Source: a virus
Direction: 5' to 3' (one strand)
Virus record (IMG/VR): IMGVR_UViG_3300023184_000004
Span: 1-39,633 of that record
Length of the DNA stretch: 39,633 bases
Both the position numbers and the translations under genes were made by a program. Under the pieces are notes generated by a model. The model worked only from the letters and a program-made list of their open reading frames with translations. It was not told the DNA's origin and did not search any database. Below are positions 16,642 through 21,112 of this stretch, piece after piece (position 1 is the first letter of the stretch; every line of letters begins with the position of its first letter).

Positions 16642-18504
16642 ATGAAAGTATTATCTTTATTTAGCGGTGTCGGCGGCTTCGACATGGGCTTAGAGAACGC
16701 CGGCATGGAAACAGTATTCCAATGCGAATGGGATAAACACGCCAATACCATCCTGCATAGGCATTGGTCTGCTGTACCGAAATGGGAAGATGTATCCACT
16801 TTGACAGGTAAACACATCCTCGCCAACGCACCCGTCATAGATGTCGTCGCGTGGGGTTCACCATGCCAAGACCTATCGGTCGCAGGTAAACGAGCAGGAC
16901 TAGAAGGTGGCAGATCCAATCTGTTCCACGAAGGCATACGCATCATCAAAGAACTACGAGAGGAAACTAATGGACAATATCCAAGAATCTCTATTTGGGA
17001 AAACGTCGTCGGCGCACTCAACTCCAACCGAGGCGCTGACTTCGGGATCATCATCGACGAAATGGCTGAAGCAGGCGCAATGGTCATCGAATGGGCAGTG
17101 CTGGATGCACAATACTTCGGAGTACCCCAACGACGAAGGCGCGTGTTCGTCATCGCTATCTTTGATCCTGTCCTCGCCAACAACTGTCCCGACCCGCTAT
17201 TACCTGTCGCCGAAAGCCTGCCAAGGCATCTTGCGAAGGGCAAACCGAAGAGGCAAAGTGCTGCCCGAACGCTTACAGAAGGCACTGGAACAGATGGTGC
17301 AATCGTCAACGCCATCGGAGCCAGTCTCTACCACCACGGAACAGTAGTGAACCAAGATGCAAACTCTGGTCACATGATTGTGGAACAGGAAGTTGTCGGA
17401 ACTTTGACTGTTTCTGACTTGGTGAAACAGGTCAATAATGAAATCATTAACAAAGGCCTATTGCAAGTTGTTGAAAATAGACAACCATTTACTTCATCAT
17501 CTTTTGCTGGTTATGAAGAAGGTGTTGGTACTCTGCGATCTAACGGTGGCGATCTTGGTGGCGGTAGCGAAACATTAGTGACTGAACCTGTTGCCTATCA
17601 CTTTGATTCATTGTCATCAAACAGCATGAAATCATCAAACCCTGATAGCGGTGTCAACCAAGTTGACCAAGCCCGAACTTTAGATACTTGGCGACCAGAT
17701 CCATCATTGAACCAAGGCGGATTAGCAATAGTTGAACCGATGCTGATAGATGGAACTCGCGTTGACGATGTCCGAGTATATGAACCACCAGTTCAAACCT
17801 TGAAAGAACGCATGGGAACAGGTGGCAACAATGTCCCGATGCTCGCCTTTGACACCCAGTTCGGAAGCAACGCAAACGTGACAGAGAATGTCGCACCGAC
17901 ACTGAAATCTTCGCAAGCACCACCATCAGTTGCATACGGTATTACAGGTAATGCGATTGGGCGGCAAGATCACAACGGTCCGAACGGGCCGTCACATACA
18001 CCTGAAGGCGGCCCGATGTTTACACTCACCAGCACCGATATCCATGCTGTCGTACAAGAAGAACCAACAGTGTTTCAACCTGGCACAATGGTCCGACTCA
18101 ACGGCGGTGTATGGGAAGGAATAGTGCCGACGCTTCGAGCAGAATCTAAACGTGGAGACAACGAACCTCACATTTTGGTCAACGAAAATATAACAAGCCC
18201 AACTTTGACGGCATACAACATGGATTCACGCTCACCACAATCAGAAGAACAACAACGCATTGTCAACGCTGTATTTGAAACAACGATGGCAGTACGCCGG
18301 CTTACACCGTTAGAGTGTGAACGGCTCATGGGATGGCCCGATGACCACACCCGCTACAAAGCCGACGGCACCGAACAGGCAGACACACACCGGTACAAAC
18401 AATGCGGGAACGGTGTTGCCTCACCAGTCGCACAATGGATCGGCAAACACCTAATCAAACTAGAACAACAATCACTACCGCTACCGACACCACCAATAAC
18501 ATGA
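16642..18504 (+). CDS. DNA cytosine-C5 methyltransferase with very long target-recognition region
   Basis: The 620-residue product is unmistakable: motif I FSGVGGFDMGLENAG, motif IV GSPCQDLSVAGKRAG (catalytic C75), motif VI ENV (E120), motif VIII QRRRRVF (Q163), and C-terminal motif IX/X (RRLTPLECERLMGWPDDHTR and CGNGVASPVAQWIG). Between residues about 185 and 545 the target-recognition region is roughly 360 residues. It contains repeated short modules of a TL-x(5-8) type with Gly/Asn-rich loops. Usual enzymes are 330-450 residues. It transfers methyl from S-adenosylmethionine to cytosine and probably shields phage DNA from host restriction. AAAGGGG is the ribosome site. Confidence 0.92.
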   Translation: MKVLSLFSGVGGFDMGLENAGMETVFQCEWDKHANTILHRHWSAVPKWEDVSTLTGKHILANAPVIDVVAWGSPCQDLSVAGKRAGLEGGRSNLFHEGIRIIKELREETNGQYPRISIWENVVGALNSNRGADFGIIIDEMAEAGAMVIEWAVLDAQYFGVPQRRRRVFVIAIFDPVLANNCPDPLLPVAESLPRHLAKGKPKRQSAARTLTEGTGTDGAIVNAIGASLYHHGTVVNQDANSGHMIVEQEVVGTLTVSDLVKQVNNEIINKGLLQVVENRQPFTSSSFAGYEEGVGTLRSNGGDLGGGSETLVTEPVAYHFDSLSSNSMKSSNPDSGVNQVDQARTLDTWRPDPSLNQGGLAIVEPMLIDGTRVDDVRVYEPPVQTLKERMGTGGNNVPMLAFDTQFGSNANVTENVAPTLKSSQAPPSVAYGITGNAIGRQDHNGPNGPSHTPEGGPMFTLTSTDIHAVVQEEPTVFQPGTMVRLNGGVWEGIVPTLRAESKRGDNEPHILVNENITSPTLTAYNMDSRSPQSEEQQRIVNAVFETTMAVRRLTPLECERLMGWPDDHTRYKADGTEQADTHRYKQCGNGVASPVAQWIGKHLIKLEQQSLPLPTPPIT

Positions 18505-18546
18505 CCGCCACCGATACCACCAACTGCTGAAACCGCAAAACATTTT

Positions 18547-18672
18547 ATGGACTACCAGCCTTCACTGTTCGACTGGATCACCGACCCGTACCGTACTGGC
18601 GACACACCATTGGCCGAATACACTGATCTACAACTTGCGGCGTTAATTGACGAATGGAAAAAAGTTACCTAA
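18547..18672 (+). CDS. Very small acidic protein, possible
   Basis: A 41-residue frame (start MDYQPSLFDWITDPYRTGDT) ends within the tandem-repeat element of the next leader. It has no clear ribosome site (CATTTT before ATG), and composition is protein-like with an amphipathic helix. The only other frame here is a nine-codon stub from 18501. Support is modest. Confidence 0.4.
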   Translation: MDYQPSLFDWITDPYRTGDTPLAEYTDLQLAALIDEWKKVT

Positions 18673-18762
18673 AAGTTACACAACGGTAGTTGCTATTGGC
18701 CGGCGCATACCCCATACTGTTAGTACCCCTACAAGATAGGGCAACTAGATGGGAGTCTAGAT
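18658..18762 (+). promoter_or_regulatory. Regulated promoter and RNA leader, copy A
   Basis: In order: tandem AAAAGTTAC half-sites with an 11-bp period (18658-18683), about 31 bp, the -10-like TACTGT (18715-18720), and a predicted start near 18727. Hairpin 1 (CCCTA-caaga-TAGGG, 18727-18741) begins exactly there. Hairpin 2 (CTAGA-tgggag-TCTAG, 18745-18760) has the GGGAG ribosome site in its loop. ATG follows at 18763. The same arrangement precedes the ardA-like gene. No good -35 is present, so an activator at the repeats is likely. A TTGGCC at 18696 is not correctly spaced. Confidence 0.6.
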
Positions 18763-19362
18763 ATGAAAGATATAACCGTTACTCGGCAAGTGTTCGCACT
18801 TGACGAGTTAAGTCCGGCAGCGCGTAACGTTGCGATAGAAAAATTACGAAACGACAACTACGAAAACATACCGTCAGACATGATCTCAGAAGGATTATGC
18901 GGCAAACTTGTCGCGCTAATCACTGGCGATGATCGTGGCGATGTTAGCGCAAAAAACCTTGAAAAATTAACTGGCCTAACTTTAGAGTGGAGCTTAAGTT
19001 ACTGTCAGGGCGACGGCGTAGCGATCTACGGCGAAATATATAACGATTACGCAACCCAATTAACTTGGGGCAACGCAGTGTGGGCAAAACTGACGCGCAA
19101 TAGTCACGGCTACCATTACTCGCATCGTAACTGTTTCACTGTAGAACTGTTCGACGGCGACGGCGACACCATCGACGACAATGGCGTTATGGCCAACGAG
19201 CTAGGCGATATGTGTACCACACTTGAACGGTACGGTTACGCCGAGATCGAACATTACACAAGCGAGCCATACGTGATCGAGCTATTAAACAATAACGATA
19301 CGCCGCGCATATTTAACGCCGATGGCACACTCGCACCGTCACAATTTTGGGCGGCCTTATGA
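18763..19362 (+). CDS. Early phage protein, unknown function
   Basis: The 199-residue product begins with a helical ALDELSPAARNVAIEKL segment and contains LEWSLSYCQGDGVAIYGEIYN. This pair (a helix of the L-S-x-A-R type and a SQGDG-like turn) recurs in phage proteins of no known role, sometimes listed as antitoxin-like. The remainder is mixed. It shares the duplicated leader with ardA, so it may be an early anti-defence or host-takeover gene. That is inference. Confidence 0.65.
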   Translation: MKDITVTRQVFALDELSPAARNVAIEKLRNDNYENIPSDMISEGLCGKLVALITGDDRGDVSAKNLEKLTGLTLEWSLSYCQGDGVAIYGEIYNDYATQLTWGNAVWAKLTRNSHGYHYSHRNCFTVELFDGDGDTIDDNGVMANELGDMCTTLERYGYAEIEHYTSEPYVIELLNNNDTPRIFNADGTLAPSQFWAAL

Positions 19363-19520
19363 TATTCCAATACGAGTACAACCATAACGGTATCTGTATC
19401 TATTCGACTACTAATGCCGGTTATCTCATTAAACGTCAGTACGCCTTTTACAGCAAGCGTGACGCGATGAGATTGTTTCGACAAGAACTAAAACAAATAA
19501 ATAAAGGAGACAAACAATGA
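19359..19520 (+). CDS. Hypothetical 53-aa protein
   Basis: The start overlaps the previous stop (ATGA). The product (MIFQYEYNHNGICIYSTTNA...) is a small beta-then-helix protein with a basic end. Its stop overlaps the next ATG at 19517, and its own 3' end supplies that gene's AAAGGAGA ribosome site. The tight coupling supports it being translated. No family was recognised. Confidence 0.6.
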   Translation: MIFQYEYNHNGICIYSTTNAGYLIKRQYAFYSKRDAMRLFRQELKQINKGDKQ

Positions 19521-19660
19521 ATTGTAAAAACTGTAAGCAGGAACTTACAGCAGTCGCAGAGATGGATGAATACGAACTATGTCACCATTGTTACTGCGAA
19601 ATAATGGACACAACTAAAACAAGGGAGACAACAAATGAACATCAAAGAACGGTTAAATGA
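19517..19660 (+). CDS. Small zinc-finger-like protein
   Basis: The 47-residue product has C-x2-C (CKNC) near its start and CHHCYC around residue 22, enough for one zinc ion. AAAGGAGA seven bases upstream is a strong ribosome site. The last 26 bases overlap the next gene in another frame; these also encode a charged tail. Confidence 0.6.
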   Translation: MNCKNCKQELTAVAEMDEYELCHHCYCEIMDTTKTRETTNEHQRTVK

Positions 19661-19769
19661 GATTAACTTTATTGCGCACGTAGCCGCAAAAACCGATGTC
19701 GATAGAAACGAACTATTAAAACTATTAAAACAAATAAAAAAACTTACACAAACAAGGATCAACCAATGA
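19635..19769 (+). CDS. Small basic helical protein
   Basis: The 44-residue product (MNIKERLNEINFIAHVAAK...) is an all-helix, Lys/Leu-rich segment. AAGGGAGA before the ATG is a strong ribosome site, and the stop overlaps the next start (ATGA). It overlaps the previous gene by 26 bases. A DNA-binding or antitoxin-like role is conceivable but not shown. Confidence 0.55.
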   Translation: MNIKERLNEINFIAHVAAKTDVDRNELLKLLKQIKKLTQTRINQ

Positions 19770-19969
19770 AACAAACACCAATAACAATAAACGACGAACA
19801 AAAACTAGACACCTACACCGTGAACTTTACCGGCGACTACGCCACCGTTACCGTTACAGTCAATGCCATTGACGACAACGACGCGCAAACATTAGCCGAA
19901 AACCTAATAACCGATTACTACGGGTGGGATCTCACAAAATGGGGCGTAGAAACGAACAAACATCAATGA
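19766..19969 (+). CDS. Hypothetical 67-aa protein
   Basis: The product alternates beta strands and a C-terminal helix (YTVNFTGDYATVTVTVNAID then DAQTLAENLITDYYG). It overlaps its neighbours by ATGA on both sides, so it belongs to the small-gene operon. AAGGATC is a weak ribosome site. No family was recognised. Confidence 0.6.
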   Translation: MKQTPITINDEQKLDTYTVNFTGDYATVTVTVNAIDDNDAQTLAENLITDYYGWDLTKWGVETNKHQ

Positions 19970-20133
19970 TCCGCACCACCACCACCGACGCAATAGCAAC
20001 CACCGTAATAATCCTATTCATGCTCGCACTCGCCGGTAGCCCTACCGATAGCAGCATTGATTGGATCGTACGAACTTTATGCGTCTACCCGTTCACTCAC
20101 CTATTTTGGCGGCATCACCACCGCCACCGATAG
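19966..20133 (+). CDS. Small single-span membrane protein
   Basis: ATG 19966 overlaps the previous stop and is preferred to a longer upstream frame. The 55-residue product has a membrane segment at about residues 8-26 (DAIATTVIILFMLALAG) and an HHHRHR basic end. Small early membrane proteins can be superinfection-exclusion or host-inhibitor factors; nothing specific is shown here. Confidence 0.55.
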   Translation: MIRTTTTDAIATTVIILFMLALAGSPTDSSIDWIVRTLCVYPFTHLFWRHHHRHR

Positions 20134-20193
20134 CAGCGACGACTACGCAGCACGAAAAAATAGTTGGCCGGTCGGGCTTCATGTTTTCACAAA

Positions 20194-20223
20194 TTGTTTA
20201 CATAATCCGGCCGGACATACCTT
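20194..20223 (+). promoter_or_regulatory. Possible promoter, near-leaderless
   Basis: TTGTTT (20194-20199), 18 bp and TACCTT (20218-20223) would start transcription near 20230, three bases before the ATG at 20233. A 6-bp inverted repeat, GGCCGG and CCGGCC, flanks the -35. Weak match. Confidence 0.3.
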
Positions 20224-20232
20224 AATAAAGAT

Positions 20233-20430
20233 ATGAAAACAAAATACACCGCAACAATACGCACGGCCGCCGGCGAACTATGTATAGGAATATTCGACAC
20301 ACTCGAAGCCGCCGCCGATCATCTCGCCGGCACTCGTGGACATATCACCCCGATATTCTTGACAGACACCCCGCTGGCCGATCTCGTACAAATGACAGTG
20401 CCGCAACTTATCGAAATATTCAACGCCTAA
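20233..20430 (+). CDS. Hypothetical 65-aa protein
   Basis: The product (MKTKYTATIRTAAGELCIGI...) has a beta hairpin then FDTLEAAADHLAGTRGHI helix and a C-terminal helix. No family was recognised. The tandem-repeat element of the next leader begins at its stop codon. It stands apart from the upstream operon by a 100-bp gap with a possible promoter. Confidence 0.6.
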   Translation: MKTKYTATIRTAAGELCIGIFDTLEAAADHLAGTRGHITPIFLTDTPLADLVQMTVPQLIEIFNA

Positions 20431-20539
20431 AAAAGTTACACAAAAGTTACACAATAAAACGCACGGCCACACACAAAATGAGATATAATCTAAACAGATC
20501 GAACAACCAACGATCTAAGCCTATGGGAGTAGGCCAAAC
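20429..20539 (+). promoter_or_regulatory. Regulated promoter and RNA leader, copy B
   Basis: Tandem AAAAGTTAC half-sites (20429-20454) match copy A at 24 of 26 positions. Thirty bases on is a perfect -10, TATAAT (20484-20489), with a predicted start near 20496. Hairpin 1 (AGATCG/CGATCT, 20496-20516) begins exactly there, and hairpin 2 (GCCTA-tgggag-TAGGC, 20519-20534) again shows TGGGAG in its loop. ATG is at 20540. The stems differ from copy A but pair perfectly, which suggests structural selection. No -35 is evident. Confidence 0.65.
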
Positions 20540-21112
20540 ATGGAAACTAAACAAATAACCGCACTAGACGAGCCAGCTATTTGGCTCGGCTGCCTATCGT
20601 GCTACAACAACGGCCGGTTAAATGGCAAATGGATCAGCGCAGAAATGGCAACAGAACCCGAAGCCGCCGAAACATTAAACGGCCTAGCCAAGCTTGTCGA
20701 ACTTGGCGACCGCACCGAAAACCGTTGCCGTAAATGTTATGGTGACGAGTTCGAAGTCATGGATTATCAACTAATCCCGAAATCATGCGCAAACGCTAAA
20801 ACGTTTTATGAAAACGCCGAACAACTAAACGAACTACACAACACCGACCAGCTAGCTCTAATCGTATTACTCGCCGAAAACATCGACACCGGTGGCCGTA
20901 TGGATCTAGACGAACTTATTAGATACCATGAAGCTAACTACGCCGGAGAACATGATAGTGCTAAAGAGTTTGGCGAGGATTACGCCGAACAAGTAGGAGA
21001 CCTAGACGCAGTACCCGAACATATGCGAAATTATATCGACTGGGAACACTACGCCACCGAGCTACTTTATGATTACTGGAAAACATCAGGCCATTATTGG
21101 CGGTCAGTATGA
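20540..21112 (+). CDS. ardA: ArdA-like antirestriction protein
   Basis: The 190-residue product fits ArdA: an N-terminal PAIWLGCLSCYNNGRLNGKW segment, acidic helices, a middle EFEVMDYQ strand, and a C-terminal EEFGEDYAEQ ... MRNYIDWEHYATELLYDY. ArdA mimics bent DNA and blocks type I restriction enzymes in the cytoplasm. Unusual here are two Cys pairs, C18-x2-C21 and C63-RK-C66, which could bind zinc. The protein is very acidic, as expected. The regulated leader at 20429 fits an early, timed anti-restriction gene. Confidence 0.78.
   Translation: METKQITALDEPAIWLGCLSCYNNGRLNGKWISAEMATEPEAAETLNGLAKLVELGDRTENRCRKCYGDEFEVMDYQLIPKSCANAKTFYENAEQLNELHNTDQLALIVLLAENIDTGGRMDLDELIRYHEANYAGEHDSAKEFGEDYAEQVGDLDAVPEHMRNYIDWEHYATELLYDYWKTSGHYWRSV

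What the first reader, a model, noticed from the sequence alone, without database searches (positions are those of the whole stretch)
18658..20542. Duplicated promoter-leader with covarying hairpins presenting the ribosome site
Two leaders, at 18658-18762 and 20429-20539, share tandem AAAAGTTAC half-sites (11-bp period, 24/26 identical), about 30 bp, a -10 (TACTGT or TATAAT), then a hairpin beginning exactly at the predicted start, and a second hairpin with loop TGGGAG. The second stems are CTAGA/TCTAG and GCCTA/TAGGC: different sequence, same pairing. That is compensatory change, which argues for selected RNA structure. The GGGAG in the loop would be the ribosome site for the 18763 gene and ardA. 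This suggests a small phage regulon with an activator or repressor at the repeats and translation control by structure.
Basis: partly seen in the sequence, partly recalled or inferred. Interest (0 to 1): 0.75.

Follow-up and report, generated by a model that had tools for sequence, protein, structure and literature searches.

The report
Phage leader hairpins displaying the ribosome-binding site
In a group of uncultured actinobacterial phages, the first gene of certain transcripts starts behind a small RNA hairpin that holds the ribosome-binding site in its loop; the stem letters change freely as long as they still pair, while the genes behind it are swapped, so it looks like a standard socket for expressing exchangeable phage genes.

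Summary
Both leaders are where stated. Folded from the predicted transcript start, both hairpins form (pair probabilities about 0.9-1.0) and GGGA is exposed. Relatives turn a two-copy hint into a strong case: about 35 related viral contigs carry more than 55 distinct leaders with the same element, a 5-bp stem and loop UGGGAG just upstream of AUG, with at least 17 stem sequences. In 35 distinct examples 96% of cells pair (shuffles 51%), all five pairs change on both sides and the loop is invariant. Those examples were picked for pairing, but an unselected count also holds: 35 of 126 UGGGAG sites before ATG are flanked by 4 or more pairs, against about 0.5% for other hexamers.

At least 15 unrelated gene families follow the element; leaders stay 83-99% identical in most pairs compared while the genes behind them differ. 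Distant orthologs have a linear AAGGAG instead. I read it as an insulated ribosome-loading element. The AGTTAC repeats occur only here and in one close relative, so the proposed regulon is weakly supported. Closest known: Cluster K mycobacteriophage SAS/ESAS (role unknown). No Rfam match. Function is untested.

The parts
18660..18679 (+). tandem AAAAGTTAC repeats of leader 1 (11-bp period), about -65 to -46 from the predicted start; the first copy overlaps the last codons of a small upstream frame
   Evidence: present in L031 with changes only in the spacer between the AGTTAC cores
18690..18718 (+). predicted SigA-type promoter of leader 1: TTGCTA (18690-18695), 17 bp, CATACT (18713-18718)
   Evidence: inference from alignment with relatives that have TTGACA-17-TAtaCT at this place; not flagged by the consensus scanner
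18727..18741 (+). hairpin 1 of leader 1 (CCCTA-CAAGA-TAGGG), at the predicted 5' end of the transcript
   Evidence: stems CCCTA/TAGGG, CTCTA/TAGAG, CCCCG/CGGGG, CCCTG/CGGGG at this place in relatives
18745..18760 (+). hairpin 2 of leader 1: 5-bp stem CTAGA/TCTAG, loop TGGGAG carrying the Shine-Dalgarno core GGAG
18763..19362 (+). gene behind leader 1; 199-aa protein, PHROG 5162 (unknown function)
   Evidence: no significant fold match in the PDB
20431..20450 (+). tandem AAAAGTTAC repeats of leader 2
20484..20489 (+). TATAAT, predicted -10 of leader 2; no recognisable -35
   Evidence: inference
20496..20516 (+). hairpin 1 of leader 2 (AGATCG-AACAACCAA-CGATCT)
   Evidence: L031 has AGCTTG/CAAGCT, two compensatory double changes
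20519..20534 (+). hairpin 2 of leader 2: stem GCCTA/TAGGC, loop TGGGAG
20540..21112 (+). ardA, antirestriction gene behind leader 2
   Evidence: Pfam PF07275, E 2e-22

Best explanation
Each leader is a ready-made expression socket: a host-type (SigA) promoter, a hairpin at the very 5' end of the transcript, then a short hairpin whose loop displays the Shine-Dalgarno core GGAG a few bases before the start codon. The second hairpin keeps the ribosome site unpaired whatever sequence follows, so an exchangeable accessory gene (ArdA, the PHROG 5162 protein and others) can be placed behind it and still be translated well. The 5' hairpin probably shields the transcript's 5' end from decay. Shown: the structures' covariation, the invariant loop, the position, and the conservation of leaders while the genes behind them change. 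Inferred: promoter use, transcript start, ribosome loading at the loop, and the insulating and protective roles.
For: Five-pair stem with at least 17 sequences, every pair changing on both sides, pairing ending sharply at pair 5. Unselected control: UGGGAG before ATG is bimodal, 91 sites with 0-2 pairs, none with 3, 35 with 4-6; other hexamers 186 of about 34,800 with 4 or more. Folding from the predicted start gives stem pair probabilities of 0.89-1.0 and GGGA unpaired 0.94-1.0. Loop variants keep GGAG while positions 1-2 change (TTGGAG in L085 and L176, ATGGAG in L171), as expected for a ribosome site. At least 15 gene families follow the element. In most pairs compared, leaders are 83-99% identical where the coding sequences behind them align at only 50-57%. 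Distant orthologs keep a promoter and 5' hairpin but use linear AAGGAG (L075, L101, L059). Later genes of the same operon in the window use linear GGAG/GGGAG sites. No trans-acting partner gene tracks the element.
Against: No expression data. A plain A/C-rich unstructured leader, as in the relatives without the element, would also expose the site, so a hairpin is not required for exposure alone. UGGGAG dominates so strongly (50 cases against 2 TTGGAG and 2 CGGGAG) that recognition of the whole loop by some factor is possible. The predicted U-G closing pair may partly hide the last G.
Confidence: 0.6

Rival explanations
1. Hairpin 2 is an RNA operator: a phage or host RNA-binding protein of the CsrA kind, or an unknown one, binds (G)GGA in the loop and blocks or helps the ribosome, so that the genes behind it are regulated together.
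For: CsrA binds (G)GGA in the loop of a short hairpin, often at the ribosome site (PMC11633198); stem length and loop position fit; UGGGAG is nearly invariant although the stem varies; the element recurs before 15 gene families.
Against: No CsrA homologue in the window or 21 related records. No window gene tracks the element. The final G of GGAG, needed for a ribosome site but to my knowledge not part of the CsrA core, is kept in every accepted variant. Each transcript has one such hairpin, whereas CsrA targets commonly carry more than one GGA site.
Confidence: 0.2
2. The pair of hairpins mainly acts on the transcript (5'-end protection against decay, or put-like antitermination as in phage HK022), and the ribosome site in the loop is incidental.
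For: Hairpin 1 starts at the predicted transcript start in both leaders and larger three-way junctions replace it in some relatives.
Against: The invariant part is the ribosome site, not hairpin 1, whose form and letters vary widely. The similarity to put is recalled, not tested.
Confidence: 0.12
3. The hairpin loop is a target for a RegB-like phage endoribonuclease that cuts GGAG and shuts early genes off.
For: T4 RegB cuts in GGAG ribosome sites of early genes (PMC3014915).
Against: No RegB family match in the window or 21 related records.
Confidence: 0.04
4. The inverted repeats are DNA operators for a transcription factor, not RNA structures.
For: Inverted repeats near promoters are common operators.
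Against: Stem letters change completely between copies while pairing is kept, and the loop is the conserved part; a DNA-binding protein would be expected to conserve the arms.
Confidence: 0.02

Closest known systems
Start Associated Sequences and extended SAS of Cluster K mycobacteriophages (GGGATAGGAGCCC; PMC3203893, PMC11373665, PMC12699233) and of Cluster EF Microbacterium phages (GGGAAAGGACCCC; PMC7302621)
   Same: Conserved element at the ribosome site of many unrelated non-structural genes; ribosome core flanked by complementary arms (GGG/CCC); about half lie just behind an extended element that holds a SigA-like promoter.
   Different: SAS is a fixed 13-bp sequence with 3-bp arms, 11-19 copies per genome; here the loop is fixed, the 5-bp stem varies, and 1-3 copies per contig were found. 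The passages I read do not describe SAS as a hairpin; its authors argue that the ESAS inverted repeats do not pair as RNA. In six Cluster K genomes all three sites changed at both outer positions still pair, but many are changed on one arm only: suggestive, not proof.
CsrA/RsmA binding hairpins
   Same: GGA in the loop of a short hairpin over the ribosome site.
   Different: No CsrA in these phages; no regulator known here.
Phage T4 RNA structures at translation starts (genes 38 and 25; gene 43 operator)
   Same: RNA structure near the translation start that affects initiation.
   Different: In T4 genes 38 and 25 the structure lies between ribosome site and start codon and shortens the spacing; the gene 43 hairpin lies upstream and binds its own product (PMC3014915).

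Membership tests
Cluster K SAS | 13-bp consensus GGGATAGGAGCCC with at most 2 mismatches | tested here: not met
   Both window sites read CTAGATGGGAGTCTAG and GCCTATGGGAGTAGGC; conversely model R1 has no hit in Cluster K stretches L157-L162
Cluster K SAS | position at the ribosome site, a few bases before start codons of several unrelated genes | tested here: met
Cluster K ESAS | promoter element with imperfect 15-17-bp inverted repeats upstream of the SAS | tested here: not met
   Hairpin 1 lies downstream of the -10 with 4-7-bp arms; the window has direct repeats, not inverted ones, upstream
CsrA-regulated leader | CsrA present in phage or host | tested here: inconclusive
   Absent from 22 phage records; the host is unknown (searches found none)
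CsrA-regulated leader | (G)GGA in a hairpin loop at the ribosome site | tested here: met
RegB target | RegB-type endoribonuclease encoded | tested here: not met
known Rfam RNA family | match at the gathering score | tested here: not met
   window 18500-20700, E up to 5, nothing near its gathering score; six related loci, none
HK022 put-type antiterminator | cis suppression of transcription termination | not testable with these tools
   needs an expression assay

The most novel reading that the evidence does not exclude
A conserved class of ribosome-displaying hairpins serves as a universal translation socket for exchangeable early genes in actinobacterial phages, either as an insulating part that makes translation independent of the gene behind it or as the shared target of an unknown phage regulator; Cluster K SAS would be a sequence-frozen member of the same functional class.
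Probability: 0.35. Interest if true: 0.75.

Novelty: new variant of a known kind. Interest (0 to 1): 0.55.

Why it matters
The role of start-associated sequences in actinobacterial phages has been open since 2011. Here the stem has varied while pairing and loop were kept, which gives the covariation evidence that the near-invariant SAS lacks and makes a hairpin model directly testable. If the insulating role is right, the element is also a naturally evolved, gene-independent ribosome site, and it marks the slots in which these phages exchange accessory genes such as antirestriction genes.

Tried and rejected
Kissing small RNA: the only CUCCCA-loop hairpins with a stem of 5 or more in the window are the complements of the elements themselves. 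A dedicated regulator gene: no window gene separates phages with and without the element (only genes of the window were tested). CsrA and RegB families: absent. Rfam: none. Host identification with the terminase and the WhiB protein in genome contigs: no relative. Repeats as a general feature: of 33 stretches with the repeat pattern, only the one close relative shows the SD hairpin in the 120 bases downstream. DNA search of the phage collection: no match. Structure of the 18763 protein (mean pLDDT 81): no significant PDB match, one significant viral match of unknown function. Literature searches for a described ribosome-site-in-loop phage element returned none among the papers listed. Sites set aside as chance or unclear: GCGCTA/TGGCGC (L042, L043), the GTGT/ATAT group, L047, L101, L109.

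Full report
What is there. The window is a virus record of 39,633 bases. It encodes a WhiB protein (PF02467), which points to an actinobacterial host, but no host could be identified. Two leaders, before the 18763 gene and before ardA (PF07275), share tandem AAAAGTTAC repeats, a promoter region, a hairpin at the predicted transcript start and a second hairpin with loop TGGGAG just before the start codon. The repeats match at 24 of 26 bases between leaders and occur nowhere else in the window. Scanning the window for GGGAG, AGGAG, GGAGG or GGAGA in a hairpin loop gives few sites, and only these two share the loop TGGGAG.

Relatives. The closest relative, contig IMGVR_UViG_3300043416_000135, has both genes and both leaders. 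Hairpin 2 is unchanged there, while hairpin 1 of the ardA leader reads AGCTTG/CAAGCT instead of AGATCG/CGATCT: two positions changed on both sides with pairing kept. A terminase search gave 80 more loci, and searches with alignments of three downstream protein families gave others. In them TGGGAG hairpins stand before start codons again and again.

Is it more than chance. The fair test does not select on pairing. Among 126 distinct TGGGAG sites shortly before an ATG, 91 have 0-2 flanking pairs, none has 3 and 35 have 4-6; for all other GGA- or GAG-containing hexamers 186 of about 34,800 have 4 or more. In a broad scan of hairpins holding GGAG, AGGA or GAGG in loops of 4-9 bases, TGGGAG gave 37 cases and no other loop more than 3. 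For 35 distinct hairpins 96.0% of cells pair against 50.9% in shuffles, the covariation score is 1.14 against 0.26, and slid structures fall to 27-45% paired. These were collected with a pairing threshold, so those figures describe them and the unselected count is the proof. Pairing stops sharply after the fifth pair. A covariance model of the hairpin finds the two window sites at E 1e-4 and 2e-4 with the next at 1.9; in 27 control stretches without the element it finds four weak hits, and the three best of them were inspected and do not lie just before an ATG.

What the loop is. The folding program pairs the first U with the last G, leaving a GGGA tetraloop, so UGGGAG could be a GNRA loop closed by U-G that overlaps the ribosome core GGAG. 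Rare variants argue that GGAG itself is what is kept: TTGGAG in L085 and L176 and ATGGAG in L171 keep GGAG but lose the GNRA form. CGGGAG with a paired stem occurs in L080 and L093, and L041, L096 and L125 have ACGGGAGA.

What it does. Three observations favour ribosome loading. First, orthologs of the 18763 protein split cleanly: in those at about 45% identity or more the element (or one of the loop variants) is present, L096 with a shorter match as well, and in more distant ones the same place has a linear AAGGAG or similar, in L075, L101 and L059 still behind a promoter and a 5' hairpin. Second, later genes of the same operon in the window use linear sites such as AAAGGAGA and AAGGGAGA, so the hairpin marks the first gene of the transcript. 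Third, the leaders are kept while genes change: leaders of L037 and L040, L060 and L065, and L041 and L096 are 88-99% identical before genes that align at only 50-57%. At least 15 gene families follow the element. I conclude that it is a standard expression socket whose ribosome site is displayed independently of the gene behind it. That it insulates, and that hairpin 1 protects the 5' end, are inferences.

Promoters and repeats. In many relatives the hairpins follow a clear TTGACA-17-TAtaCT promoter with an A-rich stretch upstream. In the window the first promoter is weaker and the second lacks a -35; both have the AGTTAC repeats at about -65 to -46. Between the window and its close relative the repeats are kept at 23/26 and 25/26 while the promoter region is kept at 31/38 and 31/40. 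A binding protein is plausible but none is identified, and the repeats are not part of the general element. An automatic promoter scan does not flag either promoter.

Comparison with known systems. The nearest described elements are the Cluster K SAS and ESAS and their Cluster EF counterparts. They too sit at the ribosome site of many unrelated genes, and their arms GGG and CCC could pair around the ribosome core. Their role is stated to be unknown. In six Cluster K genomes the few sites changed at both outer positions still pair (3 of 3), but single-arm changes are common, so a hairpin there is suggested only. The window element is not an SAS by sequence. CsrA sites resemble it closely in form, but no CsrA is encoded in 22 phage records; a host CsrA cannot be excluded. 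RegB is absent. Rfam holds no match.

Limits. Everything is prediction from sequence. Transcript starts, expression effects and the host are unknown. Many related contigs are fragments, so copies per genome are lower bounds. The library searched for papers is partial, so an earlier description of such a phage element elsewhere cannot be ruled out.

Noticed in passing
L038 7726 and 6576, L039 7321 and 6644, L042 7361, L045 8129, L084 5627 and 4829, L086 6804 and 6096, L088 6806, L092 7232 (all minus strand): In these relatives the small 5' hairpin is replaced by a larger structured leader that folds as a three-way junction followed by a hairpin and then the TGGGAG hairpin; no Rfam match in the six loci searched, pairing partly kept through double changes.
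   Followed up: partly
L021, L022, L023, L024, L026, L028: The tandem AAAAGTTACAC repeat occurs in other viral contigs without the hairpins; it may be a binding site of a widespread phage regulator.
   Followed up: no
L039 5902, L042 5940, L045 6535 (minus strand): A long GC-rich inverted repeat (GCCCGTCGTCGTCGATACCGGCGGCGGCGGGC) lies just upstream of the leader promoter, possibly a terminator that isolates the slot.
   Followed up: no
window 18763-19362: The 199-aa protein (PHROG 5162) belongs to a phage family of unknown function with an invariant QGDGVAIYG stretch in the aligned relatives; the predicted structure has no significant match in the PDB.
   Followed up: partly
L157, L162, L158: Cluster K SAS sites changed at both outer positions (Kratio T..A, Pixie C..G, TM4 T..A) all remain complementary, a hint that SAS is also a hairpin.
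   Followed up: partly
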